Shown: piece by piece, positions 1,582 through 28,695 of the stretch
Layout of the letters: every line of letters starts with the position of its first letter
Position numbering within the stretch: position 1 is the stretch's first letter
Virus record (IMG/VR): IMGVR_UViG_3300027906_000046
Location: 1 to 42,220 of that record
Length of the DNA stretch: 42,220 bases
DNA from: a virus
Reading direction: 5' to 3' (one strand)
The notes under the pieces: model-generated
Told to the model about the DNA's origin: nothing
The model's database searches: none
Seen by the model: only the letters and a program-made list of their open reading frames with translations
Made by a program: the position numbers and the translations under genes

Positions 1582-2238
1582 TTAATTTTTAATACCGCCT
1601 ATACGGTCTTTTAAACGTGGGTCTCGTATAGCTTTGTATAAGGCCGCTCCTGCTACTGCTCCCCATACAAGTGGATTTTTAGATAATGGGCTCTTAGCTT
1701 GATCCATTCCCAAGCCACCCTTTTTAACTGTTTTAACATACATAGGCGTTAAGTCACTGCCTCTAGCATTGTGATTTAAAGCAAAGCCTAATCTAGTGGC
1801 CGCTACTTTACGCTCATTTGGTAACATTCTAGGCCAGTCAGCAATAATACGTCTCATTTGATTTGTAGTACCACTTCTAACACCTAAGCCTCTTTGAATC
1901 ATTATTAATGCTCTACGATCTGCTTGAGTATCTTTTCTACCATTAACAATGTCCATTAAATATCTTTTTACTTGAGCTTGTGGCGTTTTATCAACACTTG
2001 CTAACAAATTGTGTAAATCTGTTGCTCCTGCTCGTACACCATCAAATCCTGCGAATCTCATAGTGCTTCTAGCATAGGCTTTAGCTTGGGCTGGGTTTTC
2101 ATATTTCATTACTTGTAATCCAAGTAAATGAGAATATAATGTATCACCTAAACGTGCTTGACTGCTAACATTGATCCTTTTAGGATCTTTAAACATTCTA
2201 GCTTCGCCTAATTCTTCTTTTATAAATTCAAATGCCAT
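1582..2238 (-). CDS. Putative packaged head protein, 218 aa
   Basis: No enzyme family recognised. The product is basic, mostly helical in appearance, and ends with a short hydrophobic stretch near residues 190-202. Its N-terminus (MAFEFIKEELGEAR) resembles the capsid-targeting peptide of T4 internal proteins, which ends at an (I/L)xE cleavage site for the gp21 prohead protease; LGE followed by Ala at residues 10-13 fits. The ATG overlaps the stop of the upstream gene as TAATG, so it is translationally coupled to the ligase-like gene. It is the last gene of a late operon driven from 4359-4366. A role as an internal head protein is inference from the N-terminus and operon. Confidence 0.75.
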   Translation of the reverse strand: MAFEFIKEELGEARMFKDPKRINVSSQARLGDTLYSHLLGLQVMKYENPAQAKAYARSTMRFAGFDGVRAGATDLHNLLASVDKTPQAQVKRYLMDIVNGRKDTQADRRALIMIQRGLGVRSGTTNQMRRIIADWPRMLPNERKVAATRLGFALNHNARGSDLTPMYVKTVKKGGLGMDQAKSPLSKNPLVWGAVAGAALYKAIRDPRLKDRIGGIKN

Positions 2239-3503
2239 TATTTGCTCCAGCTCTTTGCTTGATTGAAGTTTGCTTGGTTAAACTCTAATCTATCATTAAG
2301 TTTTACAGCACCACCTTCAATACCAAATGCTACAAAGCCTTCAGGATTTGTAACTTTATATCCTGAGTCTGTTTTTAAGAACGTACCTACGTTCTGTTCT
2401 ATTAATTCTAATTTCTTTAACAGTTTTAATTTAAGTTGTATAACTTGTTTATATACGGCCATAACTGCTAGTAAGTTATTTAAGTTATCATCTACAAATT
2501 GTTCTAACTGTAAATTACGTTCAATTCTTTTTTGTGCCGCAGGTCCTTCTGGTCCACTTTTAAGTCCTTCAATTTCTTTGTCCATTCTCTCTTTAAAGTA
2601 TACTACAAAGTCTTTAACAAATGCTGTTGGATCACCTATACTTTGTCCTGCTGTAATTTTTTTATTAATAAATGGTTTAACCCATTTAGCTAAATCAGGT
2701 TGCTGTAAAAATGAATTAAATCTTTCTTTATCTACTTTACCAAGTGTATTTTTACTTTGTCCTAATGCTTGTACTATTGTTTGGTTTTCACCTTTTGTTA
2801 ATGTTGCTTTACCACTAACGTCTTTATAATAAGCATCATCTACCCAAACACTAGGTACTTTCTTTAAATTGTTTACACTAGCACCAAATTCAGCTTTCAT
2901 ATCAGATAACGTTTCACCTGAGTATGTTGTATGAAAAACAACACCAATTTTTGCTTGTCTAATTGTTTTACCAATCTCGCTGTCTATTGGAACAGCATAG
3001 GTAATAGTATTAGGTGTAAATGTTATACAGGCTTCGCCATTAATATTTGATTCTTCTATTGAATCAGTAGTAAACATCATATCACCTTGTAATACTTTTT
3101 GAATTCCTAATTTACTTAATTCTGATAATGCTATTTTAAGTTTAGCATTTAATCCTTCCCCAGGATACCACTTGTCAATATCAGCATTAGTTTTGGCCGC
3201 CTTTTGTTCATTCTTACCAAATACTGCTTTAGTACCTACAAAAAACTTACCATCTACTGGATCTGTACCAACAAATACTGCTGGAGAACCGTCCCATTTA
3301 ACTGTTACTTGACTTTGTGCTTTACCGCCTGTATAAAGCATACCTCTAAGAGCATCAATATATTTTAGAGATGAAATAGCACCATCGTATCCATTATTTA
3401 AAATTAAATCTTCTAAATGTTCTAAATGTAAATTTTTGTTAGGATCGGACGCTTCTAGTAATGTTTGCCATGTACGAGGCTTGAGTACTTCTGTTATTAA
3501 CAT
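2238..3503 (-). CDS. Nucleotidyltransferase/ligase-like phage protein with putative capsid-targeting N-terminus
   Basis: The 421-residue protein carries a KWDG tetrapeptide at 69-72, matching motif I (KxDG, the adenylated lysine) of ATP-dependent DNA/RNA ligases and capping enzymes. FFVGTK follows at 87-92, GDMMF at 140-144 resembles motif III, EGFVAFG at 388-394 resembles motif IV, and AVKLNDR at 399-405 resembles motif V. A long helical insert of about 240 residues separates motifs III and IV, which is unusual. I recall similar proteins in marine T4-like phages annotated only as conserved or DUF proteins. The first residues (MLITEV, then TLLEAS at 14-19) contain (I/L)xE sites like those cut by the T4 prohead protease. 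It lies in a late operon with other probable head proteins. Ligase activity and packaging are both inference. Confidence 0.8.
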   Translation of the reverse strand: MLITEVLKPRTWQTLLEASDPNKNLHLEHLEDLILNNGYDGAISSLKYIDALRGMLYTGGKAQSQVTVKWDGSPAVFVGTDPVDGKFFVGTKAVFGKNEQKAAKTNADIDKWYPGEGLNAKLKIALSELSKLGIQKVLQGDMMFTTDSIEESNINGEACITFTPNTITYAVPIDSEIGKTIRQAKIGVVFHTTYSGETLSDMKAEFGASVNNLKKVPSVWVDDAYYKDVSGKATLTKGENQTIVQALGQSKNTLGKVDKERFNSFLQQPDLAKWVKPFINKKITAGQSIGDPTAFVKDFVVYFKERMDKEIEGLKSGPEGPAAQKRIERNLQLEQFVDDNLNNLLAVMAVYKQVIQLKLKLLKKLELIEQNVGTFLKTDSGYKVTNPEGFVAFGIEGGAVKLNDRLEFNQANFNQAKSWSK

Positions 3504-3504
3504 T

Positions 3505-4101
3505 TTATTTCCCTAATTCTGCGGATATTTGTTTACTTGCCATTCTACCAGTTTTTAAATTTATCCATTGAGCACCAGCCCACTCATATGGAGCACCGTC
3601 TGATGCTTTTTTAAGTGTACCTTTTGCTATGTTTGAACCCTGGTTTTGTGCCGCAGATGGATCTGGGTCTCCTTGAGGAGCAGGCATATTTTCTTGTACT
3701 TCTTTAGAAATTTCACTAGGTAGTTTATCTTGTACTTGTTCAATGTAAGATTGCATTTCTACTGATGACTTAGGCTTTAACATAATAGCTATTACTATTC
3801 TTAAAATAGCATTGGCGCCTTTTTTATCTGTATCAACACCAAACTCTGTTGATGCTTTTTTATATGATATTTTAGCTGAACTTGAACCATAAAATCTGTC
3901 AATCCATGCTTGTAATAAGCCAGCTGGATTTGATTTAGCATGATCACTATGTTTTGCTACAACATCTTTCCAGGCTTTATAATGACGTGCTGTCATATCA
4001 ATAACTTCGCCTATTTGGCCACCCTTACCGGATATGCCACCTGATAACTTGTAACTACCTTTACTGTAGCTCTTTACGTTATCAATTTCATTAATCTTCA
4101 T
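3505..4101 (-). CDS. Putative head or structural protein, 198 aa
   Basis: Function not recognised. The protein begins MKINEI, another (I/L)xE N-terminus like the T4 capsid-targeting peptides. It is basic in its first half, has an internal low-complexity Pro/Gln/Asp/Asn segment near residues 141-155, and a C-terminal part with an aromatic WAGAQW motif near 174-179. The ATG lies 11 bases inside the upstream gene with an AGGAAA ribosome binding site. It is second in the four-gene late operon. A role in the prohead or mature virion is likely from context but not shown by any known domain. Confidence 0.7.
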   Translation of the reverse strand: MKINEIDNVKSYSKGSYKLSGGISGKGGQIGEVIDMTARHYKAWKDVVAKHSDHAKSNPAGLLQAWIDRFYGSSSAKISYKKASTEFGVDTDKKGANAILRIVIAIMLKPKSSVEMQSYIEQVQDKLPSEISKEVQENMPAPQGDPDPSAAQNQGSNIAKGTLKKASDGAPYEWAGAQWINLKTGRMASKQISAELGK

Positions 4102-4339
4102 GCTTTAATTTCCTAATTCCTCTAGTGAATTTGACTGGCTCTTGTTTCCTAATGGCCGCTAAAAATCGTTTTTCTAGGTCTACTGCTGTTTCTTCATTGA
4201 AATTTTCTTTTATCATATTGATTAAATTAATCGATGATTGGATTAGGTGAGTTGCTCTACTTTCTACCACGTGTTTACGATCCCTATCGTACGATATAGA
4301 ATCTAATTCTTCTAGTAATGATCTTGTTTTTCTTTTCAT
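4091..4339 (-). CDS. Conserved small phage protein, 82 aa
   Basis: Function not recognised. The 82-residue product is highly charged and predicted all-helical, with an N-terminal basic stretch (MKRKTR) and a C-terminal basic tail. I recall similar short proteins in cyanophage-type T4-like genomes, without a known role. It is the first gene of the late operon 4339 to 1582: a NATAAATA box lies about 20 bases upstream and a GGGAGA ribosome binding site precedes the ATG. Its position ahead of three putative head proteins suggests a virion or assembly role. Confidence 0.75.
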   Translation of the reverse strand: MKRKTRSLLEELDSISYDRDRKHVVESRATHLIQSSINLINMIKENFNEETAVDLEKRFLAAIRKQEPVKFTRGIRKLKHED

Positions 4340-4358: not shown

Positions 4359-4366
4359 TATTTATT
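4359..4366 (-). promoter_or_regulatory. Late promoter (AATAAATA) of the head-protein operon
   Basis: The minus strand reads AATAAATA, matching NATAAATA. It lies about 20 bases before the ATG at 4339 and is the only plausible start for the operon 4339-1582. The region 4340-4461 separates two divergent genes and holds no other feature I can define apart from a ribosome binding site for the plus-strand gene. Confidence 0.65.
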
Positions 4367-4461: not shown

Positions 4462-5181
4462 ATGAATAGAAGTAGTCATTTCGCTAATTTGGCAGGATTA
4501 GTGTATGAAGAATTCGACGCTAAATTAACAGCTAAACTAAAAAAGGTCGGATATACTAAAGTACAATTTATAAGCAAAGACGGTGCTCAAGTAGTAGTAT
4601 TAACAAACAAAGATGAGCAGGTGTTAGCTTTCAGAGGTACAGAGCCAAAAGAGTTTAATGATATCAAAGCTGACCTAAAAGCATGGAAGAGCAAGTCTAG
4701 AACTGAAGGTAGAGTACATGATGGCTTTTATGATGAAGTTAATAAGGTCTGGAAAGACATAAAAGAGAAATTAAGCACAACAAAACCATTATATATTTGT
4801 GGTCACAGTTTAGGTGGAGCAATGGCAACAATCGCCGCTAGTAGATTACAAAATAAATGTAAAGAATTATACACGTTTGGATCACCTAGAGTTGGTAATA
4901 AAAAATGGGTAGAAAGTGTTAATGTTAAACACTACAGATGGCGTAATAATAACGATCTAGTTACTAAAGTACCTTTATGGATTATGGGTTTTAGACACCA
5001 TGGAGATATGATGTACATTAACCATTACGGTAATTTGAGAAACGGTTTATCTAAATGGCAATTATTTAAAGACTGGGCCAGAGGACATTGGGCGGCCATT
5101 AAAAACTTTGAACTGTTTGACGGTTTAAGAGATCACGGTATGGCTAACTACGTTAAGAATACTGCTAAAATAAACAAATAA
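4462..5181 (+). CDS. Class 3 lipase-like alpha/beta hydrolase
   Basis: The 239-residue product has the nucleophile elbow GHSLGG at 114-119 (Ser116), the FRGTE block at 58-62 and the HDGF block at 86-89, all typical of class 3 (fungal-type) lipases. D165 in the NNDLVTKVP segment and a histidine around 179-188 complete a plausible Ser-Asp-His triad. There is no signal peptide, so it would act in the cytoplasm, or be carried in the virion. An AGGAG ribosome binding site precedes the ATG. It is transcribed alone and divergently from the head-protein operon; a weak TAAATA box near 4420 could serve it. Substrate may be host phospholipids or another ester. Its stop lies one base from the convergent GNAT gene. 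Confidence 0.85.
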   Translation: MNRSSHFANLAGLVYEEFDAKLTAKLKKVGYTKVQFISKDGAQVVVLTNKDEQVLAFRGTEPKEFNDIKADLKAWKSKSRTEGRVHDGFYDEVNKVWKDIKEKLSTTKPLYICGHSLGGAMATIAASRLQNKCKELYTFGSPRVGNKKWVESVNVKHYRWRNNNDLVTKVPLWIMGFRHHGDMMYINHYGNLRNGLSKWQLFKDWARGHWAAIKNFELFDGLRDHGMANYVKNTAKINK

Positions 5182-7866: not shown

Positions 7867-8530
7867 ACTTATCTAATTCAAATTGTTGAATTGGTTTAGT
7901 ATTAGCATCTAGTAACTCTATGTTTCTTTTTGCCCAATCCATGTATCCTGTTTTCTGTCTAAAATCTTGATCATCTACACTTATTCTAGAATCAGGATAT
8001 CTACTAGAATAATACTCCCTATATAATTTATAAGTTTCTACAGTATCCTCTGGTCTAACAATAGTAGATCTATCATCTTTCATTTGAATACAAACAGCCC
8101 AATGATGAATCCATTCATCATTATCACAATCAAGCCATTGAAAAACTGGTTTCCTAAATATCCCATAATCCCAATGAGTAGGAAACCAGTCAGAACTTTT
8201 AGCATAGTTTCTTCTACCTAATCTTGGTAAATTTCTATCTGGGTTTCCTCCTAAGAATTTAAAGTCGGGGTTTGAATTTTGTAATTCATTTTTTAGATGC
8301 TGTTCTGAATTAAAAGTTAGTCTACATTCTTCAGACCATTCCCAGTCTAGTTTTTCTAAACGTTCTGCTTGTTTGTACAAATAGTCTTGTCCGGGAAATC
8401 CATTAATAGTATTGTATCTATTAATATCATTTTCTTTATGCTTCTCTTCGTTAAGTTTACAACAAATATACTCACCACCTTGTCCCGGATGGTACACTAG
8501 TACTCTTTGATGATCTTTGAACCAACTCAT
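7847..8530 (-). CDS. Sulfotransferase-like or P-loop-like phage protein, 227 aa
   Basis: The N-terminus runs [16 protein letters not shown], similar in pattern to the start of the protein at 35331-36032 (IVYPVGAGGQFLAY) and to phage proteins with a sulfotransferase-type phosphosulfate loop after the first strand. No canonical GxxxxGK(S/T) is present. The rest is rich in Trp and charged residues, with a possible helical C-terminus. A sulfotransferase-like fold is inference from this N-terminal pattern only. The ATG overlaps the stop of the ferredoxin gene (ATGA), so it is coupled to it, and the stop overlaps the convergent gene at 7492-7866. Confidence 0.6.
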
Positions 8531-8907
8531 TCCTCAGACTTTCCTGGTGGCATAGCTTTCTCGCTGAATAGATGCTTCTTTCCTTCTGGAAAATTATCAG
8601 GATGATATTTTTCATGCTCTGGCATAGGGTCATCATTTTCTGTTATAACAGGCCAAGCATTCTTTTCAATGAACTCAGCATTGTTATATTTTAACCAATA
8701 AGCTAACTCTTCTGGGTCTTTACTAGAATCTGTATCTGCCCAAATTGCCTCTACTGGACATTCAGGTTCACATACTCCACAGTCAATACATTCATCAGGA
8801 TTAATTACTAAAGTATTTTCGCCTTCGTAAAAACAGTCAACTGGGCATACCTCTACACAGTCTTTGTGTTTACACAAGACACACTTGTCGTCTACTAGGT
8901 AAGTCAT
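8527..8907 (-). CDS. fdxA: FdxA-type 7Fe ferredoxin
   Basis: The 126-residue product aligns by eye with Azotobacter vinelandii ferredoxin I. By analogy, C9, C17 and C50 would bind a [3Fe-4S] cluster and C21, C40, C43 and C46 a [4Fe-4S] cluster; C12 and C25 match the additional cysteines of that family. The segments [14 protein letters not shown] and [14 protein letters not shown] are hallmark sequences. The C-terminal extension (about residues 60-126) is acidic and polar as in bacterial FdxA. It is a small cytoplasmic electron carrier. The partner enzyme is unknown; a phage radical SAM protein lies at the left edge and ThyX uses flavin and NADPH, so neither link is established. The gene was probably acquired from a host. 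Confidence 0.92.
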
Positions 8908-18960: not shown

Positions 18961-20089
18961 CGATTATTTTGATATAATGAGATACGAGTATTCTATTGTT
19001 TTAGAAGAAGGACTCAATGACAATACAAATTTTTTTGCTAAAATGTCTTCTTATGCTATAAGCGATCGTATATACAAAACTGCTGAAGAATGTCAAACTA
19101 AAGGATATTTTCATATTACTAGTAATAACAAAAACATTAACGAAGATTTATTAATGCTTTTGTTAAAAGAACAACATCTAAAAAAAGCATCAAAAGTAAA
19201 AAGCCCTTGTGGTACTATTACAAGTTACTATAATGAATTTACTAACAATGAAGTTACCATTGATAATAAAGAGTGGAACGAAGTATTAGGTGTTGCTGTT
19301 GAATGGCAAACAGACGACTATATAAGAAACAAACTTACTATGAGCTTAGGAGGTTACACTTTAGTTCATCATTTGTTTAATACAGAAAATTATAGAGAGT
19401 CTGAAATTAAAAAAGCTAAATCAAAAGGAGGACAGTTTGATCAGTTTGTATTATTACCTAGTGGATTAAAATTTGCTTGGTTGCTACATCAATTAGACTG
19501 GGAATGGCATAAAAGATTAGTACTATATGATTGTAGTAGTTTGCCTATTTCTTTTGCTAAAGAAATGATTATTGACTGGGATGGAAAGCAACCATTACAT
19601 GAATGGGCTTTAGAACATCCAGTTGCTAAAAGTATCCTAGTACAAACAGGACAATGTACAGAAGGTTGTAGACCAGGTGCTGGTCCTAGAGAATGGGATA
19701 GAATGTGGAAAGAAGAATGTGAAAAATGGGGAGGAGTTGAAAACATTACTAAAACAATGAATAAACTTCAACACGCCGAATTAATGGGTAACATATCATG
19801 GGTTACATTAAACATAGTTACAGATACTATGGGACAAGATGTGTTGTTTAACTCTTTAGAAAACAAACAAACATTGTTCTGGATGAGTAACGTATTTGAT
19901 ACTGCTACAATTGGTTCTATTGTAGCCGGCGACAAAAATAAACTTTATGACGTATCAGCAAGACACGACTTATGTCTATCAACTTACAATACATTAAAAA
20001 ATAAACTTCCTAGCCCTACTTTTATTACAGGTAGTGTTCCGGACATTAATAGTGATGACGGTTGGAAGGGTTCTGATTGGAAGATTTAA
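18950..20089 (+). CDS. Unknown Rossmann-like protein, paralogue 2, 379 aa
   Basis: Paralogue of the preceding gene from about residue 165 on (see that entry), so the pair arose by tandem duplication. Notable differences include QTGQCTEGCRPGAGP (residues 231-245), a Cys/Gly loop absent in paralogue 1, and DWDG at 209-212 where paralogue 1 has SPWD. Starts at the ATG at 18950, 11 bases inside the previous gene; the ribosome binding site is weak. Its stop overlaps the convergent FkbM gene in a short palindrome. The C-terminus is acidic and Trp-containing. Function unknown; a methyltransferase-like role on the cassette's substrate is speculative. Confidence 0.75.
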   Translation: MLYNDYFDIMRYEYSIVLEEGLNDNTNFFAKMSSYAISDRIYKTAEECQTKGYFHITSNNKNINEDLLMLLLKEQHLKKASKVKSPCGTITSYYNEFTNNEVTIDNKEWNEVLGVAVEWQTDDYIRNKLTMSLGGYTLVHHLFNTENYRESEIKKAKSKGGQFDQFVLLPSGLKFAWLLHQLDWEWHKRLVLYDCSSLPISFAKEMIIDWDGKQPLHEWALEHPVAKSILVQTGQCTEGCRPGAGPREWDRMWKEECEKWGGVENITKTMNKLQHAELMGNISWVTLNIVTDTMGQDVLFNSLENKQTLFWMSNVFDTATIGSIVAGDKNKLYDVSARHDLCLSTYNTLKNKLPSPTFITGSVPDINSDDGWKGSDWKI

Positions 20090-20919
20090 ATTAGCTTGTT
20101 TTTGTTAATTTGATCAACTGATACTCTGTCATACATTTTCTTATAAGTATCTTCTCTATCTGTAACTGGCTCTAAATAATCAAATTTTACTTTTAACTTC
20201 GGTGATAGTATTAGTATGTTAATAACACCACTAGTACCAAATATATTCTTTTCGTAATTATTGTAATTGTCCGGGTTATAATTTCTAACAGGGCACCAAT
20301 AAAATTTATGATATCCTAGTTTTGTAAATCTATCCCATAGAGGTGCTAAATGAGTTTCTGTGTTACATTCAATAAAACAAGTAGGCAAGTGTTTTGCTAG
20401 TGTATGTTTAGCACCTTTAAACACATCAAGTTCTTCACCTTCTACATCACACTTAATTAAATCTAATCTTTCAAACTGTATTTGATCTAATCTCATAGTA
20501 GGAACTAACGACATATATTCACTGCTAGAGTTTAAACTTGATTCGCCATAATTTCCAGGCTTCTGTGGATTGTAGTTACTTAAATATCTTTCTCCAGCAC
20601 TTCTACTTAAAGCATAAGGAAATACTGTAGCATTAGTAACTTTGTTATCTAATAAATTACGTTCTAATAATCCTCTAGAATATTCGTTAGGTTCAAAGGC
20701 GTGTACATGGCCTTTATGAGCAAATTTAGTAAAAGGTACTGTATGAGTTCCTATGTTAGCACCTATATCAGCTATATGCCAGTCAGATTCAATAATATGA
20801 TCTAAACACATAATCTCCCATTCACAGTATTCGCCATATACTGCCATACTTTTTCCTATGATAATATCATTATCAAAAAAAGTAAAATTACCGTGTCTAC
20901 ACTTTTTCTTTGTTATCAT
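20086..20919 (-). CDS. FkbM-family SAM-dependent methyltransferase
   Basis: The 277-residue product has motif I DIGANIGTHT (about residues 51-60), an acidic HAFEPNE motif II (about 73-79), and LDLIKCDVEGEELDVFKGA (about 152-170), the signature of FkbM-type O-methyltransferases. These add methyl groups to sugars or polyketides, using SAM. The C-terminal tail (about residues 220-277) is less typical. Its ATG overlaps the stop of the glycosyltransferase upstream, so it works in a glycan-modifying operon. Confidence 0.92.
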   Translation of the reverse strand: MITKKKCRHGNFTFFDNDIIIGKSMAVYGEYCEWEIMCLDHIIESDWHIADIGANIGTHTVPFTKFAHKGHVHAFEPNEYSRGLLERNLLDNKVTNATVFPYALSRSAGERYLSNYNPQKPGNYGESSLNSSSEYMSLVPTMRLDQIQFERLDLIKCDVEGEELDVFKGAKHTLAKHLPTCFIECNTETHLAPLWDRFTKLGYHKFYWCPVRNYNPDNYNNYEKNIFGTSGVINILILSPKLKVKFDYLEPVTDREDTYKKMYDRVSVDQINKNKLI

Positions 20920-21620
20920 ACCCAGTGTTCTTTTATAATTGGATCGTCAGCTATATCGCCAGGATTTGGATTTCCATGAAATACTAATATACTTGTTTCA
21001 GGGTTTATTATTGTTTCGTTAGAAACATATTCTTGTGTTCCCATACGTTTTAATCCACCATTAAGAACTTCCCATTTATAACTCATAGCCCATTCTTTAG
21101 GCCACCATGAGCGGTCCTCTTCTAATATCCTAGTTAACCAGTCTTGATCTCCTTTAAATTTTTTAATAATATTATCTTTGTTTTCAACAAAGTCTTTGTA
21201 AAATCTAGTATAACCATTTGCTTCAAATTTCATTACACTACTGTTGCTAACATAGTATTTAGGCATTCCGTGCCGATTAAAATCTTGGCATATATTAAAA
21301 TCGGTAGGTCTATGGTTGAAAAACTTATCTAAATTATTAACAACGACTGTATCCAAGTCTAAATATAATATTTGTCCATTCCAGTTATGTTCATTAAATA
21401 AATGAGCTTTGTACCACCACTTATTTTTGCCGTTTTCTAATTCTTCATCAACAGGAATACCAATAGGTATTACATTAGGGTTATTAACTTCTTGAGGATG
21501 AGTTGTTAAACAATAAAAATTAAAAGGCTGTGTTATGTTTCTCTTTACACTATTGTAAAGTTTGTCTACATAAGACATAGTATACTTTGGCTTAATCCAA
21601 ACACAGGCTACATTAATCAT
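20916..21620 (-). CDS. Glycosyltransferase (GT-A fold)
   Basis: The 234-residue product contains the DLDTVV segment (about 98-103) with a DxD motif for metal-nucleotide sugar binding, and FHGNPNPGD near residue 215, a C-terminal pattern of the same family. Start by the ATG at 21620; overlaps of four bases with both neighbours. It probably transfers a sugar onto a phage or host glycan. The substrate is unknown. Confidence 0.85.
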   Translation of the reverse strand: MINVACVWIKPKYTMSYVDKLYNSVKRNITQPFNFYCLTTHPQEVNNPNVIPIGIPVDEELENGKNKWWYKAHLFNEHNWNGQILYLDLDTVVVNNLDKFFNHRPTDFNICQDFNRHGMPKYYVSNSSVMKFEANGYTRFYKDFVENKDNIIKKFKGDQDWLTRILEEDRSWWPKEWAMSYKWEVLNGGLKRMGTQEYVSNETIINPETSILVFHGNPNPGDIADDPIIKEHWV

Positions 21621-21970
21621 TTTATCTTAGAACCTACTGTACGCCTTTTAATGTCGCTATGATTAAATTCAGCCCAGTACAATTCAAAAGCTACTCCATC
21701 TTCTACACCTTCAAACTGATGTACCATTCCAGGCTTAACCTGTGTAAAATCTCCTGCTTCAAGAATAGTTTCATCTACTAAACCTTCTTGATCATTACTT
21801 TGCCAAACCCTAACAATCATTTTGCCTCGTTCAACAAAGAAACCATTCCATTTAAACTCGTGTTCGTGTTCTGAACATTTAAAACCTTTTTTAAATTCAA
21901 TACGATGAAACTCTAGTACACCGTTAGCATGAATAAGTTCTGTCTGTCCCCAAATTTTTCCTGCTTTCAT
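21617..21970 (-). CDS. Cupin-fold protein
   Basis: The 117-residue protein has the cupin pattern: H34-E-H36-E38 (CSEHEHEFKW) followed by GKMIVRVW, then EAGDFTQVKPGMVHQFEG with a second histidine near 83-84. Small single-domain cupins in phage glycan clusters resemble the C-terminal cupin of mannose-6-phosphate isomerase and other sugar-nucleotide enzymes. The exact reaction cannot be read from the sequence. Operon with glycosyltransferase and ThyX; overlapping starts and stops. Confidence 0.8.
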   Translation of the reverse strand: MKAGKIWGQTELIHANGVLEFHRIEFKKGFKCSEHEHEFKWNGFFVERGKMIVRVWQSNDQEGLVDETILEAGDFTQVKPGMVHQFEGVEDGVAFELYWAEFNHSDIKRRTVGSKIK

Positions 21971-22641
21971 TATTCGTTTCCTAATGTATCCATAAGAGGA
22001 AATATTTTACTAATAATATCAGCACAGGCATGAGCTATATCCATATGCTCTTTTTGTGTACCATTAGCACCTCTTAATTCAATATAATGTACCCAGCTTC
22101 GTAATGTGCCATTCATATATAATCTTGTTTTAGTCATACCTTCTGGCAATACTACACGGGCTTGTTCTTTAGCAATACCATTACTAATTGCCCAGTTATA
22201 AGCATCTTCTGACGCTTGTTGTACTGCTGATTGCTTTTTAAACCATTCCATAGTTAAATGTACATCTTCAGTTTCAATACTATTTTGTCTATTTTTAGTA
22301 TCTTGTAATCTAGCATCTCTCATCTCATACCAATCTTCCATAGTAGTTGGATCAGCATAACGTTGACTAAATTCTTGGAAACTAAAACTTCTGTGCCTAA
22401 CTATTTGGTGTGCTATATCTCTTGTTGTTTCTATTTCTAAACAAGCACTAACCATTTCAAGTGGAGACCAATGTTGATGTTGTATTAAATACTTGATCAA
22501 ACGTTCACTTGTTTGTTTGTTTATTTGGTTTGCTGGATTGCTTACTTTGGCACAATAGGCTACCAAGTCTTGTACATTATCCAATCCAAGATTTTTAAAT
22601 TCTTCTGTGGGTGCTGAATACGATACTAATTTTACTTTCAT
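21970..22641 (-). CDS. thyX: Flavin-dependent thymidylate synthase ThyX
   Basis: The ThyX signature RHRSFSFQEFSQRY is at 82-95 (consensus RHRxxSxxxxSxRY). ThyX makes dTMP from dUMP using methylene-tetrahydrofolate, FAD and NADPH. Length (223) is typical. TAATG overlap with the SGNH gene upstream. Many marine T4-like phages carry thyX to feed DNA synthesis. Downstream it overlaps the cupin gene by one base. Confident call. Confidence 0.97.
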   Translation of the reverse strand: MKVKLVSYSAPTEEFKNLGLDNVQDLVAYCAKVSNPANQINKQTSERLIKYLIQHQHWSPLEMVSACLEIETTRDIAHQIVRHRSFSFQEFSQRYADPTTMEDWYEMRDARLQDTKNRQNSIETEDVHLTMEWFKKQSAVQQASEDAYNWAISNGIAKEQARVVLPEGMTKTRLYMNGTLRSWVHYIELRGANGTQKEHMDIAHACADIISKIFPLMDTLGNE

Positions 22642-23222
22642 TATAATTTAAACTCTTCTTTCATACTTTCAAAATACTTTATGTGGCACATTTCGTTCGG
22701 GTGTCCTTTGGGCTCTATACCATACTGGTCAGCGTAATCCATCAATGTTGAAGATGTATGCCAGTTAGTGCCATGAAGGGTTTTAAATCGACTAGTAGAA
22801 CGTGAAATGCCTGAAAAGAAATATATTTTGTTGCCTAACACTTGACAATATTTTTCAAACTGCTTAAAACGTTTAATATAATATTGTTCTAATGTATCTT
22901 CATTATAGCACCATTTAAAGTAAAGGTCAAGACTTTCTTTTAATCCAGGGAGTTTACTTTTTTCATTTATACTATACGTCTGCATTTCATCTGCTACTGA
23001 TACGTGTGGCCAAAAGATTCTTGATATATCAGTAATACCTACTAGTACAGTATGTCCTGGTTTTACTTGTTCAAATGCTTCAAGTAAAATCTCATCATTG
23101 CCGGCACCTATACGTCCAAAATTAAATAATGGTTCACCAATATGTTCAGCAAACAATTTAGGTATTATTTGTTTACCTTCTAGCTCTTCTCCGGCTACTA
23201 TGCTACAACCAAAGGCTAACAT
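22641..23222 (-). CDS. SGNH/GDSL-type hydrolase-like protein
   Basis: The N-terminal GCSIVAG at 5-11 resembles block I of SGNH hydrolases (Ser7 as nucleophile). GAGND at 39-43 resembles block III, and GHPNEMCH at 173-180 resembles block V. The usual Asp two residues before the block V histidine is replaced (PKGHPN), so activity is not certain. These enzymes act as esterases or acetylesterases on sugars. Located between purine phosphorylase and ThyX, with short overlaps on both sides. Confidence 0.75.
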   Translation of the reverse strand: MLAFGCSIVAGEELEGKQIIPKLFAEHIGEPLFNFGRIGAGNDEILLEAFEQVKPGHTVLVGITDISRIFWPHVSVADEMQTYSINEKSKLPGLKESLDLYFKWCYNEDTLEQYYIKRFKQFEKYCQVLGNKIYFFSGISRSTSRFKTLHGTNWHTSSTLMDYADQYGIEPKGHPNEMCHIKYFESMKEEFKL

Positions 23223-23926
23223 ACCGTTTCTAAAACAGTTGTGACCATATCATCAAAACTGCTTTGCCTTTCTTGAGCAGACATAGAATCTCCTCCATCT
23301 AAATGATCGCTCACAGTACTAACGGCTAATGCTTTTTTGCCAAATCTCATAGCTAAAGTGTATAGTAAATGAGCTTCCATTTCAACAGCAAGTATTCCTA
23401 CGTCTGCTAAAGGTTTCCACCAATCTTCTTCTGGCTGGTAAAAATAGTCTGTGCTAACAATACTACCTACATGATACTTTGCTGTCTTAGGTATGTTGCT
23501 AACAAAATCTTTTAATAATTCATAATCGGCACAAGGACAAAATTTTACATCAGTATATAAACTAGATAATATTTTACTAGACATATCACTATCAGTAGAG
23601 GCTGTCATGGCAACAACAATGTCTCCTAACTTAACGTTTTTTGCTAATCCTCCACAGCTACCAACTCTTATAATATTTTTTACATCATAAAAGTTATAAA
23701 GTTCATGAGCATATATTCCTAAACTAGGTTGTCCCATGCCACTAGCTTGGACACTAACTCTTGAATCATTATAATATCCAGTGTATCCTAAACAGTTTCT
23801 TACACCGTTTACTTGCTTATAATCTGTTAAAAATGTTTCAGCAATCCATTTAGCTCTAAGAGGATCGCCTGGCATTAAAACTGTAGGAGCATAATCTCCT
23901 TTTTGTGCTTCAATGTGTGGTGTCAT
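23216..23926 (-). CDS. deoD: DeoD-type purine nucleoside phosphorylase
   Basis: The 236-residue product matches DeoD along its length: TPHIEAQKGDYAPTVLMPGDP at the N-terminus, GSCGG near residues 89-93, a VEMEA motif near 178-182 and SDH near 204-206 (catalytic Asp). E. coli DeoD is 239 residues. It cleaves purine nucleosides with phosphate to bases and ribose-1-phosphate. In a phage it can recycle host RNA/DNA purines for replication. Four-base-type overlaps link it with SGNH and HAD genes. Confidence 0.93.
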   Translation of the reverse strand: MTPHIEAQKGDYAPTVLMPGDPLRAKWIAETFLTDYKQVNGVRNCLGYTGYYNDSRVSVQASGMGQPSLGIYAHELYNFYDVKNIIRVGSCGGLAKNVKLGDIVVAMTASTDSDMSSKILSSLYTDVKFCPCADYELLKDFVSNIPKTAKYHVGSIVSTDYFYQPEEDWWKPLADVGILAVEMEAHLLYTLAMRFGKKALAVSTVSDHLDGGDSMSAQERQSSFDDMVTTVLETVC

Positions 23927-24491
23927 TTATTACTCCGTATAACTCTTTCCAACTTGTTACCCTAAGACCTTCCCACCTTTTATTGTATGGATGGTCCATA
24001 ATAATACTTTTTAATCCAGCGTCTTGTCCACTAACAGCATGACTTACGCTATCTTCGATCCACCAGTGTCCTGTATCACCATAATGTTCAGCAAGGTAGT
24101 CTCCTTTGCCTCCTGTAAAACTTAAACTGGCATCAATTTTATCAAACACATCTCCAAACAAGTGTGTTAAATTCTTTTTTCTTAAAGTTTGAGCATATTT
24201 GTCAATATGTAAACTACTAACAACATCAAAACGCCATCCTTCTTCAGCAAGTCGTGTAACATATTCTACACTATCTCTAAAAGCAGGCAAGTAACCTACT
24301 GATGCTGACTCATTAAAACTTTTTATAGTATCAATCATATCTTCTTCACTAATACCATAACGTATTGTTTGATTAAAACTATGATCTGTGTCTGGTTGCC
24401 TTTGAAATCCTTGTTCGCTCATCCAAATGTCGTAAGCATAACACCAATCTAATAATACACCATCACAATCTGTTATAATTTTCTTACTCAT
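23910..24491 (-). CDS. HAD-family phosphatase-like protein
   Basis: Residues 8-12 are DCDGV, the HAD nucleophile motif (DxDGx), with D8 as nucleophile. SSLHIDK (about 92-98) is motif II-like and WWIEDSVSHA (about 138-147) is motif IV-like. HAD enzymes dephosphorylate sugar or nucleotide phosphates. The gene sits between the nucleotidyltransferase and the purine phosphorylase, so its substrate could be either a sugar phosphate in nucleotide-sugar synthesis or a nucleotide. No more specific call is justified. Confidence 0.85.
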   Translation of the reverse strand: MSKKIITDCDGVLLDWCYAYDIWMSEQGFQRQPDTDHSFNQTIRYGISEEDMIDTIKSFNESASVGYLPAFRDSVEYVTRLAEEGWRFDVVSSLHIDKYAQTLRKKNLTHLFGDVFDKIDASLSFTGGKGDYLAEHYGDTGHWWIEDSVSHAVSGQDAGLKSIIMDHPYNKRWEGLRVTSWKELYGVINDTTH

Positions 24492-25212
24492 GAGTTGCTA
24501 ACAATCTTCTTATTTCTTCCCAAGTACCTAAGTCAGTATAATCATCAACTTTAATACCTTTACTTTGGAATATAGGTGTACTTTTAATTTCATCAACATT
24601 TACTCTTTGGTTTAATGTACTCTTTTCCATAAAAGCAATACATTCATCAAATGCTCTACGTCTAAAAGCAAAGCTACACCAAAAAGCATTAAACCTTTCG
24701 AAGTCTTGTTCTGGCTTATCTTCATACAATACTACTTTGCCTTCGGGGTCAATACTCAAAGCACCTTTAGTTTTTAACATATCAGGATTTGTTTCTTCTT
24801 TGTAAAAAAATGTAAAGCCAGTTTCAGTTAAACTGTTTTCTAATGCTTCTACTAAATCTACATTAGGTGGTAATTTCATAATAGTATCAGGTAACAGTAT
24901 AACATTATGCTCACCAAACAAATGTCTAGCACTTTTTATAGCACCTGTGTATTCAAATTCGTTTGGATTTTGATAAGTGAAACTTATATTATACCTATCT
25001 TTATATCTTGCTAGATATTCTACTATTTCTGTTTTTTCTTCGTTAACAACAATAACAAATTCAACATCTTTACGACCATAATCTCTAAAAAAGTCAAAAC
25101 TGTGATCTATTAATGCTTGTTCTTTGTCAAGTCTTAATATTTCTTTTGGGTAAGGCAGGTTCAAACGTGTGCCTTTGCCGGCGGCCGGCATAATAACTGT
25201 TAATTTACTCAT
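24484..25212 (-). CDS. Sugar-nucleotidyltransferase (RmlA/HddC-like)
   Basis: The N-terminal AAGKGTRL (about 10-17) and PYPKEIL (about 20-26) are the nucleotide-binding signature of NTP-transferases that make NDP-sugars from sugar-1-phosphate. A DDYTDLGTWEE C-terminal segment (about 224-234) is typical of these enzymes. The start is at the ATG at 25212; one codon more upstream would be a TTG. The sugar and nucleotide are not determinable. It is coupled to the HAD gene and to the gene at 25205-25840. Confidence 0.9.
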   Translation of the reverse strand: MSKLTVIMPAAGKGTRLNLPYPKEILRLDKEQALIDHSFDFFRDYGRKDVEFVIVVNEEKTEIVEYLARYKDRYNISFTYQNPNEFEYTGAIKSARHLFGEHNVILLPDTIMKLPPNVDLVEALENSLTETGFTFFYKEETNPDMLKTKGALSIDPEGKVVLYEDKPEQDFERFNAFWCSFAFRRRAFDECIAFMEKSTLNQRVNVDEIKSTPIFQSKGIKVDDYTDLGTWEEIRRLLATHE

Positions 25213-25840
25213 CAATGTAATACCTCAATACTTTCAATTTTTGTTCTGGAGTGTGATTCTGAGATGTCCCGGCAGTAATCCAGCAAGTTTGTTCTTTTAG
25301 TTTTTTATAAGTGTTAATGTTTTTAAATTGTTCTTCTGCTAAAACGTTGTGGTGAGTTAAATTTTCCTCTTGCCACATATTCATCTCGTGGTCGCTTTCA
25401 GGAGGATTAGCAATCATTACTTTTGCTTGTTCAACAACACGTTTAGCACCCTCTGGTGTGAAAATTGCCGCCGATACACCACCTATAAAACCACGTTTCA
25501 TTCGACCAATTCTTAACTGCTCTACAGTATGTTCACCAAATATTTGTGTTTTAACTGCTAAACAATTTATCTGTGTTTCTAATATTGGTTCTCCTCTTTC
25601 ATAAGGCAAGTTTAACCAACGTAAAAGATAAAAATGTTTTCTAATAGGATCTGCTGGCATTGATTTTGTAACGTCTTTCCACTCTACACCAAATGCTTGA
25701 CACCTATGTTGCTGTTCAATTGTAGGTTTATATATAGCAACATACTTTTTCATGTCAGGATAGAACTTGTTAGCCTGGTGAGCCCACAAATGAAAGTAAA
25801 GATCAAAATATTTTGAGTCTGCCGCACAGTATAATATCAT
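25205..25840 (-). CDS. Glycosyltransferase-like conserved protein, 211 aa
   Basis: No clear catalytic motif. The N-terminal segment (MILYCAADSKYFDLY) and the alternating strand-helix pattern suggest a GT-A-like fold, but no DxD is seen; the corresponding position reads EPILETQINC (about 84-93). It may be a glycosyltransferase of an unrecognised family or an inactive relative. It overlaps its neighbours by four to eight bases in the sugar-nucleotide cluster. Confidence 0.6.
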   Translation of the reverse strand: MILYCAADSKYFDLYFHLWAHQANKFYPDMKKYVAIYKPTIEQQHRCQAFGVEWKDVTKSMPADPIRKHFYLLRWLNLPYERGEPILETQINCLAVKTQIFGEHTVEQLRIGRMKRGFIGGVSAAIFTPEGAKRVVEQAKVMIANPPESDHEMNMWQEENLTHHNVLAEEQFKNINTYKKLKEQTCWITAGTSQNHTPEQKLKVLRYYIDE

Positions 25841-26637
25841 TCTTCCTCGCTATCCCAACGCTCTATATCATCTTCTGTTAATTTATCAGTTTCACCTTTC
25901 CATATTTCAATAATATGTGCCGGCTTATCTGAACTATTTCTACCTTTATGCCAAACACTTTTTACTATATCAATAGGATTATTAGGATGAAGTGTCCATA
26001 CAGCAGGTCCATCATACGGATCAGTTATACCTTGCTTAATTAAAACTTCAGCATTACCACTAACTAGATTCCAAGTTTCGCTTCTATGTTCGTGCCTTTG
26101 CATCGACAAAGCACTATGTGGATTAATAACTAATTCTTTTACCATAAAATTTTTACCTTTGTACAAATTTCTATAATGTCCCCAACTTCTTACTGTCTTT
26201 GGAGCCTTCCATTCTTCTAATATCCAGCTACTTGAATTCTTTTTATCTTCACCGCCTACACCAAAAGCAAATTCAACACTAGCATGGTCACCATATGTTA
26301 TATATTCTGGTGTTGTAGTATCTGTTCTGTCACCTCCGTTAGCAAATACTATTTTAGTATTATGACCATTTGTACTCATTAAGTAAAAAATGGCGTTACA
26401 GGCGCTATCATCAGCATCATCAAAAGCAATTACATCATCTACACAGGATAACTCCTGTACTACTGCCATTCTTTCTTCAAATGGCATAAACGGTCTACCT
26501 TTTTTACGTCTTAACCATTCGTCTGAATTAAGACCTACAACAAGTTTATCACCTAAGCCTTTAGCTGACTTAAAGTAAGCAATATGACCGCTATGTAGAG
26601 GATCAAATCCTCCTGTAACGAGTACTACTTTAGCCAT
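25837..26637 (-). CDS. Cytidylyltransferase-cupin fusion
   Basis: Residues 1-130 are a nucleotidyltransferase of the cytidylyltransferase/HldE C-terminal type: GGFDPLHSGH at 9-18 with the HxGH box at 15-18, then GLNSDEWLRRKKG and the GGDR motif at 101-104. Residues 150-215 form a cupin of the mannose-6-phosphate isomerase type II kind, with H182xH184 and E187. Such a fusion (an activator of a sugar phosphate joined to a sugar-binding cupin) is unusual. It suggests an enzyme that makes and positions a nucleotide-sugar. The C-terminal tail is acidic. A weak AGGAT ribosome binding site precedes the ATG at 26637. Confidence 0.88.
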   Translation of the reverse strand: MAKVVLVTGGFDPLHSGHIAYFKSAKGLGDKLVVGLNSDEWLRRKKGRPFMPFEERMAVVQELSCVDDVIAFDDADDSACNAIFYLMSTNGHNTKIVFANGGDRTDTTTPEYITYGDHASVEFAFGVGGEDKKNSSSWILEEWKAPKTVRSWGHYRNLYKGKNFMVKELVINPHSALSMQRHEHRSETWNLVSGNAEVLIKQGITDPYDGPAVWTLHPNNPIDIVKSVWHKGRNSSDKPAHIIEIWKGETDKLTEDDIERWDSEEE

Positions 26638-26645
26638 TAATAATC

Positions 26646-27335
26646 CTATTGACTAGAATATAAATTAATGACTTCCTTTTTCCATACATCACTGTATTCA
26701 CAATCTCTCTTATTATCGAACCAAGGTCCGCCTTCTGTATAATGTAGTACTTTTGGCTTACCGTCTTTTGGTTCTTGATACCAACCGACTAACCAATTAT
26801 AGCTACAATTCAATTCACCAACTTCTGAATCATCGAGCCAACTAAACCTATGGATATATTTTCCTGTAGTTTCAGGATTATTAATAAGCTCTTTTGTTAA
26901 TCTTTTATTACTAGGGTGGCCACAGTTAAACAAAACCATAGAACTCCAGTTTTTCCTAGGATATTGTAACTGTAATTGCCCATCCATTTTAGTTCCTTCT
27001 TCTGGTGTGTAATCATGTTGTACACACATCACAGCATACTTGTCATCTGCTTGATTAAATATCTCTTGAGCATCAACTAAAAAGACCATATCACAATCGC
27101 AGAATATGGCCCAACCTTTATAGTCGTTTAAGTATGGTACTAAAAATCTAGTAAATGTAAATTCTGTACTAGCGAGTTTATCTACATCTCTAGTATAAAC
27201 TCCTTTATCTCTTAATTCTTGTTGTTTTAGTGGGAACACTTCTATATCTTTTGATCTATTTAAAATACTATGCTCACAAACTTGGTAAGCTATATCTTCT
27301 CTACTATCCCAGCCAACATAAACTCTATTCTTCAT
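26646..27335 (-). CDS. Glycosyltransferase (GT-A, DCD motif)
   Basis: The N-terminal YVGWDSREDIAY and the FCDCDMVFL segment (about 93-101) with a DxD-type motif are typical of a family of small glycosyltransferases common in marine bacteria and phages. The substrate is unknown. It lies in a run of three glycosyltransferase genes, with a 10-base overlap with the next. Confidence 0.85.
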   Translation of the reverse strand: MKNRVYVGWDSREDIAYQVCEHSILNRSKDIEVFPLKQQELRDKGVYTRDVDKLASTEFTFTRFLVPYLNDYKGWAIFCDCDMVFLVDAQEIFNQADDKYAVMCVQHDYTPEEGTKMDGQLQLQYPRKNWSSMVLFNCGHPSNKRLTKELINNPETTGKYIHRFSWLDDSEVGELNCSYNWLVGWYQEPKDGKPKVLHYTEGGPWFDNKRDCEYSDVWKKEVINLYSSQ

Positions 27336-28065
27336 TGTTATCTCTTTCTTTACCTGTAAATTCTAAACTACGCCCTAGTATTTTCCTTGGGCCTTTTGTA
27401 TGGTCGTAAACTTGTCCTAATACACTTCTACATTGAACGTGACCTTTTTTGTTATCACTTATATTATAATTTAGTGTACCTCTTTCTTCAAATCTAAACC
27501 TTACTTCGTCCCATATCCAACTGTCGTGCCATTCCTTTTCATTGTATAGCATATCAGAATTATACATTTCTTGAACCGCTTCAGCAAAGTATTTGGTGTG
27601 CGGGTGTTTTAAATTAAAATATAGATAACCACACTCGCTGTAATCTGGTCGTGGTCTACCTAAGTAAGTCATCATATATCCATCACGATGTATTTTTTGT
27701 TTCATCCAATCTACATCTATAGGATTATAAAATACACTATCAGCATCTATACATATTAAGCCGTCTGTGCCTGCTTCTATTTGTTTTAATATTTCGTGTG
27801 TATATACATAAACTTTATAACAAAATCTAACAGCATCAAATTTAAAAGTACTGCCTTTTAAATCTGGTACTTTTCTGCTTCCATTTCTTTCAACAAATTC
27901 TTTACATTTAGGAATAAGATCAAATGTATTAAACGTTTCTACATTAGGTATTTCGTCTTCACTATAAACAATTAGTTCAAAAGGCCAATTATAAGTTGAC
28001 ATAAATCTATGAGCATACTCATCATATAAACGTTTATTAAAAGTTGTTACTGTTTTTATGTTCAC
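27325..28065 (-). CDS. Glycosyltransferase-like protein (DADS motif)
   Basis: MNIKTVTTFNKRLYDEYAHRF at the N-terminus is similar to the next gene's MKIHCVTTFSNDGYKQYAHRM, so the two are paralogues. CIDADSVFY (about 102-110) supplies the DxD motif. The start is GTG at 28065, overlapping the preceding stop as GTGA and with an AGAGGA ribosome binding site. The donor and acceptor sugars are unknown. Confidence 0.82.
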   Translation of the reverse strand: MNIKTVTTFNKRLYDEYAHRFMSTYNWPFELIVYSEDEIPNVETFNTFDLIPKCKEFVERNGSRKVPDLKGSTFKFDAVRFCYKVYVYTHEILKQIEAGTDGLICIDADSVFYNPIDVDWMKQKIHRDGYMMTYLGRPRPDYSECGYLYFNLKHPHTKYFAEAVQEMYNSDMLYNEKEWHDSWIWDEVRFRFEERGTLNYNISDNKKGHVQCRSVLGQVYDHTKGPRKILGRSLEFTGKERDNNEE

Positions 28066-28679
28066 TTGCTAATCCTCTTTAACACTTCGTTATCTTTTAA
28101 ATTATTAAACAAATGAGCACCTATTCTTTCTCTTGATTTATCATAAGCATCTTTATCTGTGTGAGCAGGTGAATCCCATATTTTATCTCTTCGGTATTCA
28201 TCTAAAAAGTATTTTAAAAACTCTCTAGCATCTCCATGATCTAAGTTAATCATATGAAATCCAGTTTCTGTAGGATCTAGTGAACAAGCACCGAGATAGC
28301 CTTCTACTAGACTTGCTAACTCAGGTGCTGTCATAGGACTATGTGTAATAGTATCAGCATCTAGAAAAATTACAATTTGCTCTTTTAAATTAATGTGCTT
28401 ATCACAACAATCTCCAAAAGCAAAAACTTTATGACTAAACTTAATACCGTCACTTGGATTATTTTTATTTCTTGCTTTGAAGCTTTCTAGTTCCTTGTTA
28501 TTGAAAGCCCACATTTTAACATATCTAGGATATAGCTTGTTCCATTGAGGAGCAGGCATATCATGGTATACATGGAGGGTAATATCGCTAGGCCAGTGTT
28601 CAATCCACGAATCTAACATTCGGTGGGCGTATTGCTTGTATCCATCATTACTAAAAGTTGTTACACAATGTATTTTCAT
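28062..28679 (-). CDS. Glycosyltransferase-like protein, paralogue of the next gene
   Basis: The 205-residue product has an N-terminal segment (CVTTFSNDGYKQYAHRML) similar to the 27325-28065 protein and a VIFLDADTIT segment (about 102-111) with a DxD-type motif. It is shorter than its paralogue by about 40 residues. Role in glycan synthesis is inferred. Confidence 0.82.
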   Translation of the reverse strand: MKIHCVTTFSNDGYKQYAHRMLDSWIEHWPSDITLHVYHDMPAPQWNKLYPRYVKMWAFNNKELESFKARNKNNPSDGIKFSHKVFAFGDCCDKHINLKEQIVIFLDADTITHSPMTAPELASLVEGYLGACSLDPTETGFHMINLDHGDAREFLKYFLDEYRRDKIWDSPAHTDKDAYDKSRERIGAHLFNNLKDNEVLKRISK

Positions 28680-28695
28680 AATCGTATTGTCCGGT

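What the first reader, a model, noticed from the sequence alone, without database searches (positions are those of the whole stretch)
2238..3503. Ligase/nucleotidyltransferase-like protein possibly packaged in the capsid
Seen: KWDG at 69-72, GDMMF at 140-144, EGFV at 388-391 and AVKLNDR at 399-405 in order, matching motifs I, III, IV, V of covalent nucleotidyltransferases; N-terminus MLITEV/LLEA resembles T4 prohead-protease targets. Inference: a nucleic acid or protein nucleotidylating enzyme carried in the head and injected, comparable to T4 Alt in logic but not in chemistry. A 240-residue insertion between motifs III and IV is odd.
Basis: partly seen in the sequence, partly recalled or inferred. 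Interest (0 to 1): 0.75.

Follow-up and report, generated by a model that had tools for sequence, protein, structure and literature searches.

The report
Ligase-like enzyme addressed to phage head
A marine T4-like phage gene of unknown function (family DUF6267) looks like a distant cousin of RNA ligases and carries a short front tag of the type that sends proteins into the phage head, so the virus may deliver a ready-made repair enzyme into the cell along with its DNA.

Summary
It belongs to Pfam DUF6267 (E 5e-103), a family without assigned function. An AlphaFold model is confident (pLDDT 87) with a disordered leader. For an insert-less relative, 32 of the top 50 PDB matches are RNA/DNA ligases or capping enzymes, though each E-value is weak. 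The family shares T4 RNA ligase 1's post-motif-III PN-I-Y signature and EG-V...13...K spacing. In jumbo phages the same gene slot holds an RNA-ligase-like gene. Packaging: relatives carry leaders with T4 IPIII's capsid-targeting pattern (49/93 non-redundant relatives against 6/447 distant genes), and in four cyanophages the only ORFs with that leader (4 of 150 scanned) are NMNAT-like proteins found in virions by mass spectrometry. The window's own leader is an Alt-like tandem (LITE|V, LLE|A). Best reading: a head-packaged, Rnl1-like nucleotidyltransferase co-delivered with kinase/NMNAT/pol-beta partners, probably for RNA repair. Fold very likely, packaging likely, substrate a guess. DUF6267 itself has not been seen in a virion.

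The parts
2238..3503 (-). DUF6267 protein, 421 aa, predicted covalent nucleotidyltransferase (ligase-like)
   Evidence: ORF; PF19782 E 5.1e-103; phrog_455; AF2 model pLDDT 86.8, pTM 0.83
3438..3503 (-). N-terminal leader, residues 1-22, with two prohead-protease-type sites LITE|V and LLE|A; predicted capsid-targeting propeptide
   Evidence: sequence; pLDDT <50 for residues 1-21; leaders of relatives
3288..3299 (-). motif I K69-W-D-G72, predicted adenylated lysine K69
   Evidence: K, D, G invariant in 87/87; strand-turn-strand in the model
3228..3230 (-). K92, candidate motif Ia basic residue
   Evidence: invariant 87/87
3081..3089 (-). motif III QGD (139-141); Asp in place of the usual Glu
   Evidence: Q and D invariant, G 86/87; in strand 137-145
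2997..3014 (-). PNTITY (164-169), matches the P-x-N-x-I-V..Y stretch after motif III of T4 RNA ligase 1 and PN[TS][IV].Y of jumbo-phage RNA-ligase-like proteins
   Evidence: P, N, T, Y invariant; T4 RnlA PTNRIVLAY; Atu_ph07 PNTVVY, Phosso PNSIRY
2400..2795 (-). helical insertion, residues 237-368, between the nucleotidyltransferase halves
   Evidence: AF2 secondary structure; shorter in L156
2331..2342 (-). motif IV EGFV (388-391)
   Evidence: E, G, V invariant
2289..2309 (-). motif V AVKLNDR (399-405); K401 13 residues after E388 as in T4 Rnl1 (E227-K240)
   Evidence: K401, R405 invariant; spacing
1582..2238 (-). downstream operon gene, 218 aa, MAFEFIKEELGEA leader; homologue of Atu_ph07 gp064 and Phosso 448
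   Evidence: tblastn 4e-5 / 4e-6; leader
3505..4101 (-). upstream operon gene, 198 aa, unknown
   Evidence: ORF; no phage match
4091..4339 (-). first operon gene, 82 aa, phrog_11854 'virion structural protein', SLLEEL leader
   Evidence: E 2.4e-16; synteny with jumbo phages
4359..4365 (-). ATAAATA, T4-late-promoter-like box just upstream of the operon (weak)

Best explanation
The gene encodes a divergent covalent nucleotidyltransferase whose motif set is nearest to T4 RNA ligase 1 (Rnl1). It carries a cleavable N-terminal capsid address, is made late, is taken into the prohead, is trimmed by the gp21-type protease after Leu/Ile-x-Glu, and is injected with the DNA. Once inside, K69 would be adenylated and the enzyme would seal RNA ends, most plausibly tRNAs cut by host anticodon nucleases, together with co-packaged partners: a zeta/polynucleotide-kinase-type P-loop kinase (encoded a few genes downstream in the window's own lineage), and in other lineages NMNAT-like and pol-beta nucleotidyltransferases. 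Shown here: family membership, motif invariance, leader pattern, operon company. Inferred: superfamily fold (about 0.85), packaging (about 0.75), RNA-ligase/repair function (about 0.5-0.6).
For: Invariant catalytic residues in 87 relatives. Confident AF2 model with motifs I, III, IV, V on strands in ligase order. Insert-less relative: 32 of the top 50 PDB hits are RNA/DNA ligases or capping enzymes, Naegleria RNA ligase first; best non-family viral hit is an RNA ligase of Agrobacterium phage Atu_ph07, E 6.7e-3, prob 0.85. Rnl1-type PN.I.Y and E-13-K spacing. Synteny: in Atu_ph07 and Phosso the same slot, between phrog_11854 and the homologue of window 1582-2238, is held by an RNA-ligase-like gene (PF09414 E 0.002 / 0.085) followed by a gene that reads as a pol-beta NTase (GSGG...SGDIDV, my reading; no Pfam hit). 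Leaders: 101/110 relatives have [LI]xE before the folded core; the strict IPIII pattern is in 49/93 DUF6267, 26/273 near genes and 6/447 far genes (p 9e-37 and 5e-7); in T4 the regex finds IPII, IPIII and one other of 244 ORFs. Virion proteins proven by mass spectrometry with this leader: S-SZBM1_140, S-CREM2_154, S-SM1 GC190, S-SCSM1_91 (PMC9146016, PMC10665884, PMC3037559, PMC9602691); S-CREM2_156, a pol-beta NTase, is also in virions. gp21-type protease PF03420 in the relative with the 74%-identical homologue. Role of RNA ligase, kinase and pol-beta NTase in phage RNA repair: PMC7824862.
Against: No Foldseek PDB hit below E 0.001 for either model; hhalign to Rnl1/Rnl2 not above decoys. Motif III has Asp, and the second motif V lysine is absent. 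DUF6267 has not been reported in a virion; S-SZBM1_141 (no leader) was not detected although its neighbours were. The window's own leader does not match the strict IPIII pattern. The commonest partner is NMNAT-like (34/57 loci) and not a kinase (11/57), and one lineage fuses DUF6267 to NMNAT, which also fits an NAD-linked role. No substrate evidence.
Confidence: 0.42

Rival explanations
1. An NAD-linked enzyme: DUF6267 is a ligase-fold protein that uses NAD+ (or makes an adenylated intermediate) and works as one unit with the NMNAT-like protein, which turns the released NMN back into NAD+; the packaged pair protects or restores NAD+ and ligation capacity early in infection.
For: True DUF6267-NMNAT fusion of 591 aa in S-PM2d (Foldseek rank 1); NMNAT-like gene within a few genes downstream in 34/57 non-redundant loci; four NMNAT-like proteins in virions (PMC3037559). 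The invariant HxxH..ED stretch ahead of motif I has no counterpart in the ATP-dependent RNA ligase motifs I know and is unexplained.
Against: No NMNAT-like gene next to the window's DUF6267; its lineage has a zeta/PNK kinase there. No match to NAD+-dependent ligase models in Pfam.
Confidence: 0.2
2. An ordinary intracellular ligase that is not packaged; the leader is a chance N-terminal extension.
For: Cyanophage members often lack the leader (S-PM2, S-SZBM1, P-HM1) and lie among replication genes; S-SZBM1_141 not detected in virions.
Against: Leader pattern in 49/93 against 6/447 and its exact presence on MS-proven virion proteins; leader disordered in the model; neighbours include virion proteins.
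Confidence: 0.2
3. A packaged protein-modifying nucleotidyltransferase (AMPylator-like host take-over enzyme, the reader's Alt analogy).
For: Alt-like leader (MLITEV against T4 Alt MELITEL); the head route fits host take-over.
Against: I know of no protein-modifying member of this fold; the Rnl1-like signature and RNA-repair-type partners.
Confidence: 0.08
4. A catalytically dead scaffold or DNA-binding internal head protein.
For: Motif III Glu and the second motif V Lys are replaced.
Against: K69, D71, G72, D141, E388, K401 invariant over 33-96% identity, which is hard to keep without catalysis.
Confidence: 0.1

Closest known systems
Pfam DUF6267 (PF19782) / phrog_455 / T4-GC71 of cyanophages
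   Same: Full-length match, E 5e-103; same invariant residues; found in T4-like marine phage genomes
   Different: No function assigned; cyanophage members mostly lack the leader and some are fused to, or sit next to, NMNAT
T4 RNA ligase 1 (RnlA, Rnl1 family) and jumbo-phage RNA-ligase-like proteins (Atu_ph07 gp066, Phosso 446)
   Same: KxDG, acidic motif III, PN-I-Y type signature after motif III, EG-V; Lys 13 residues on as in T4 RnlA; same gene slot in the jumbo phages
   Different: No significant sequence or fold match; Asp in motif III; second motif V Lys missing; extra N-terminal HxxH stretch and helical insert; has a capsid-targeting-type leader, T4 RnlA has none
T4 internal head proteins (IPI-III, Alt) with capsid-targeting sequence
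   Same: Short N-terminal leader with aromatic/hydrophobic residues and L/I-x-E; gp21-type protease in relatives; Alt-like MLITEV
   Different: IPs are small non-enzymes, Alt is an ADP-ribosyltransferase; packaging of DUF6267 not yet seen
Virion-associated NMNAT-like 'cytidylyltransferase' (T4-GC190) of cyanophages
   Same: Same operon, sometimes fused, same leader type, proven in virions
   Different: HIGH-superfamily nucleotidyltransferase, unrelated fold

Membership tests
DUF6267 (PF19782) | profile match over full length | tested here: met
   E 5.1e-103, profile 1-376/376
Covalent nucleotidyltransferase (ligase/capping) superfamily | motif I KxDG, motif IV EGxV, motif V Lys, in order and conserved | tested here: met
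   invariant in 87/87
Covalent nucleotidyltransferase (ligase/capping) superfamily | motif III acidic residue (usually Glu) | tested here: met
   Asp141 invariant; conservative replacement
Covalent nucleotidyltransferase (ligase/capping) superfamily | fold | tested here: inconclusive
   32 of top 50 PDB hits are superfamily members but best E 0.44; full model no hit below 1e-3
Covalent nucleotidyltransferase (ligase/capping) superfamily | lysyl-NMP intermediate | not testable with these tools
   needs in vitro assay
Rnl1-type RNA ligase | P-x-N-x-I-V..Y signature after motif III; E-13-K spacing of motifs IV-V | tested here: met
   PNTITY and E388-K401 against PTNRIVLAY and E227-K240; shorter form in DUF6267
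Rnl1-type RNA ligase | significant profile similarity | tested here: not met
   hhalign not above decoys; the test was insensitive in the one control tried (T4 Rnl2 profile against Atu gp066 also fails)
Rnl1-type RNA ligase | RNA sealing activity | not testable with these tools
   needs in vitro assay
T4-type capsid-targeted internal head protein | leader with L/I-x-E cleavage motif before the folded domain | tested here: met
   LITE|V and LLE|A in the window protein; 101/110 relatives
T4-type capsid-targeted internal head protein | IPIII pattern at positions 4, 7, 8, 10 | tested here: not met
   window protein fails the strict pattern, although 49/93 relatives pass it; T4 Alt and IPI also fail it
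T4-type capsid-targeted internal head protein | gp21-type protease encoded by the phage | tested here: inconclusive
   PF03420 E 3.6e-26 in the 204-kb relative carrying a 74%-identical homologue; the window itself is a 42-kb fragment, so it could not be tested in this phage
T4-type capsid-targeted internal head protein | present in the virion | not testable with these tools
   no proteome of this phage; leaderless homologue S-SZBM1_141 not detected

The most novel reading that the evidence does not exclude
Marine T4-like phages pack a whole RNA-repair kit into the head (DUF6267 ligase, zeta/PNK-type end-healing kinase, pol-beta nucleotide-adding enzyme, NMNAT), each with an interchangeable capsid-targeting leader, and inject it so that cleaved tRNAs are mended before any phage gene is expressed. 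That would be a pre-loaded counter-defence, not one made after infection as in T4.
Probability: 0.28. Interest if true: 0.85.

Novelty: new variant of a known kind. Interest (0 to 1): 0.62.

Why it matters
DUF6267 is widespread (466 phage records; at least 592 viral-contig hits) in common ocean myophages and has no assigned function. A specific catalytic lysine, a specific leader and a specific route (head packaging and injection) make its role directly testable. The capsid-targeting pattern calibrated here (4 of 4 hits are proven virion proteins among 150 cyanophage ORFs scanned) also gives a simple sequence rule for predicting head-packaged enzymes in metagenomes.

Tried and rejected
Sequence searches of PDB with the single protein and with the profile: nothing relevant. 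NCBIfam and PADLOC: nothing for the protein. hhalign to T4 Rnl2 and Rnl1, and to jumbo-phage ligases, with 150 decoys (one of which turned out to be a truncated family member): not significant, though local matches to RnlA, Atu gp066 and Phosso 446 fall in motif register. Late-promoter scan: ATAAATA box upstream of the operon, but the motif is not over-represented in the window (TATAAATA 2 found, 10 expected), so weak. Protein AMPylator reading considered and rated low: no support beyond the Alt-like leader. A first attempt at neighbour clustering timed out and was replaced by direct phmmer counts. Papers: DUF6267, PF19782 and T4-GC71 do not occur in the library. Supplementary tables (S-SM1 virion list, Table S8 of PMC3037559) could not be opened, so whether T4-GC71 was detected in S-SM1 virions is unknown to me.

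Full report
WHAT IS THERE. The window is a 42,220-base fragment of a virus record from a T4-like marine phage; it holds a UvsW-type helicase and a RecA/UvsX-type gene. The finding's ORF runs 3503->2238 on the minus strand and encodes 421 aa. Pfam assigns nearly the whole protein to DUF6267 (E 5e-103), PHROGs to phrog_455, both without function. tblastn finds 466 phage records, nearly all cyanophages, plus Methylophilales, Pelagibacter and Stenotrophomonas phages; an alignment-based scan of viral contigs found at least 592 relatives.

IS IT A LIGASE-LIKE NUCLEOTIDYLTRANSFERASE? I aligned 87 relatives (33-96% identity). Only 31 columns are invariant, and they include every catalytic residue the motif reading predicts: K69, D71, G72 (motif I), D141 (III), E388, G389 (IV), K401 (V). 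The chance of 7 out of 7 is 6e-9. AlphaFold gives a confident model (pLDDT 86.8, pTM 0.83): motif I is a strand-turn-strand, motifs III, IV and V lie on strands, residues 1-21 are disordered, and a helical bundle (237-368) is inserted before motif IV. Because that bundle disturbs fold comparison, I also modelled a natural relative with a shorter insert (L156, 307 aa, pLDDT 83.8). By my reading of the names, 32 of its top 50 PDB matches are covalent nucleotidyltransferases: Naegleria RNA ligase first, then archaeal RNA ligase, chains of a Pnkp/Rnl/Hen1 complex, DNA ligases, capping enzymes, T4 Rnl1 and Rnl2. Many are repeat entries of one protein and no single match is significant (best E 0.44), so the enrichment, not any one hit, is the evidence. 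Profile-profile comparison with Rnl1 and Rnl2 does not rise above decoys, but it also fails between T4 Rnl2 and a jumbo-phage protein that Pfam links weakly to RNA ligase.

WHICH KIND OF LIGASE? Two details point to Rnl1. After motif III, T4 RnlA has PTNRIVLAY and RnlB has nothing similar; DUF6267 has PNTI.Y with P, N, T and Y invariant. Between motifs IV and V, T4 RnlA has EGYVAVMKDGSHFK, DUF6267 EGFVAFGIEGGAVK: E to K is 13 residues in both. Then synteny: the window operon is phrog_11854 (virion structural, 4091-4339), a 198-aa gene, DUF6267, and a 218-aa gene (1582-2238). The jumbo phages Atu_ph07 and Phosso have phrog_11854 or its homologue, a gene of about 240 aa, an RNA-ligase-like gene (KLDG, PN[TS][IV].Y, EGVV; PF09414 E 0.002 and 0.085), a gene that reads as a pol-beta nucleotidyltransferase (no Pfam hit), and the homologue of the 218-aa gene. 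DUF6267 sits in the ligase's slot. Phage RNA repair by ligase plus kinase plus pol-beta NTase is established knowledge (PMC7824862).

IS IT PACKAGED? In T4 IPIII the first ten residues MKTYQEFIAE suffice for packaging; residues 4 and 7 matter for targeting, 8 and 10 for cleavage (PMC9026906). Relatives of our protein start MYSFKQYLNEA, MINFNSFITED, MKFTEYLTES and so on, followed at once by the conserved core KNLHLEH. A strict pattern modelled on IPIII finds IPII, IPIII and one other among 244 T4 ORFs. Among 93 non-redundant loci it finds 49 of 93 DUF6267 proteins, 26 of 273 near neighbours and 6 of 447 more distant genes (sequences are related, so the p-values of 9e-37 and 5e-7 overstate independence). 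The best validation: in the held segments of S-SCSM1, S-CREM2, S-SZBM1 and S-SM1 (150 ORFs) the pattern hits exactly four ORFs, and all four are the NMNAT-like protein that the published mass-spectrometry work found in virions. S-CREM2 gp156, a pol-beta NTase, is also a virion protein and starts MKKLISEL, like T4 Alt's MELITEL. The window protein's own leader, MLITEVLKPRTWQTLLEASDPN, fails the strict pattern but has two L/I-x-E sites, the first Alt-like; other relatives have the same tandem (MKLFEIRNTAPRWQLCEAAEG). Within the window three of the four operon genes have such a site in the first 22 residues, against 2 of 56 other ORFs. A gp21-type protease is encoded by the relative with the 74%-identical homologue. 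Against: S-SZBM1's DUF6267 lacks a leader and was not detected while its NMNAT neighbour was. That fits the leader as the address, but it means no DUF6267 has yet been shown in a virion.

COMPANY. Downstream in the window's own lineage (L001, identical protein, which extends past the window) lies a 625-aa protein with a CTS-like start and a zeta-toxin/polynucleotide-kinase-type kinase domain (PF06414 1.7e-15; phrog_505 polynucleotide kinase 1.5e-7). Elsewhere: NMNAT-like (34 of 57 loci), zeta/PNK kinase (11), adenylate kinase (3), pol-beta NTase region (3). S-PM2d encodes DUF6267 and NMNAT as one 591-aa protein. So a set of nucleotide-handling enzymes shares the operon and, in many lineages, the address tag.

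CONCLUSION. Most likely a head-packaged, Rnl1-like covalent nucleotidyltransferase delivered with the DNA, with RNA (tRNA) repair as the leading function and an NAD-linked function with NMNAT as the main rival. Fold and packaging are good inferences; substrate is open. It is filed as a member only of DUF6267; for ligases it 'works like', with membership unproven.

Noticed in passing
window 40684-42123 and 37643-38728: A TctA-type tripartite tricarboxylate transporter subunit (PF01970 E 8e-98), and nearby an ORF with a signal-peptide-like start that reads like a solute-binding protein (no Pfam hit). Unusual cargo for a phage.
   Followed up: partly
L001:11326-13203: In the window's own lineage, just beyond the window: 625-aa protein with CTS-like start MSWHSLLNELDV and a C-terminal zeta-toxin/PNK-type kinase.
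   Followed up: partly
L114:2954-3541, L134:1239-1826, L136:7191-7769: Adenylate-kinase-like genes (PF00406 E 1e-38 for L114) with capsid-targeting-type leaders directly downstream of DUF6267; a packaged adenylate kinase would be new to me.
   Followed up: partly
L158:8013-8726 (S-CREM2 gp156): A virion protein annotated hypothetical is a pol-beta nucleotidyltransferase (PF01909, over cut-off) with an Alt-like start MKKLISEL.
   Followed up: yes
window 3408-3437 (residues 23-32): Strongly conserved KNLHLEHLED stretch (H26 and H29 invariant, E31 and D32 86/87) at the start of the core, ahead of motif I; not part of the ligase motifs I know and unexplained.
   Followed up: no
S-PM2 NC_006820 103025-104804 against LN828717 93485-95260: The original S-PM2 record splits DUF6267-NMNAT into two ORFs; the later S-PM2d record has one 591-aa ORF, so the split into T4-GC71 and T4-GC190 there may be a sequencing artefact.
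   Followed up: yes
window 8527-8907: Small ferredoxin-like protein with two Cys clusters ([26 protein letters not shown]), by reading only.
   Followed up: no
window 4462-5181: Class 3 lipase (PF01764 E 1.5e-23) on the opposite strand next to the operon; possible lysis or take-over gene.
   Followed up: no
window 20086-31431, e.g. 25837-26637: Long block of sugar-related genes by reading; 25837-26637 is a cytidylyltransferase fused to a mannose-6-phosphate-isomerase cupin, distinct from the NMNAT-like partner.
   Followed up: partly
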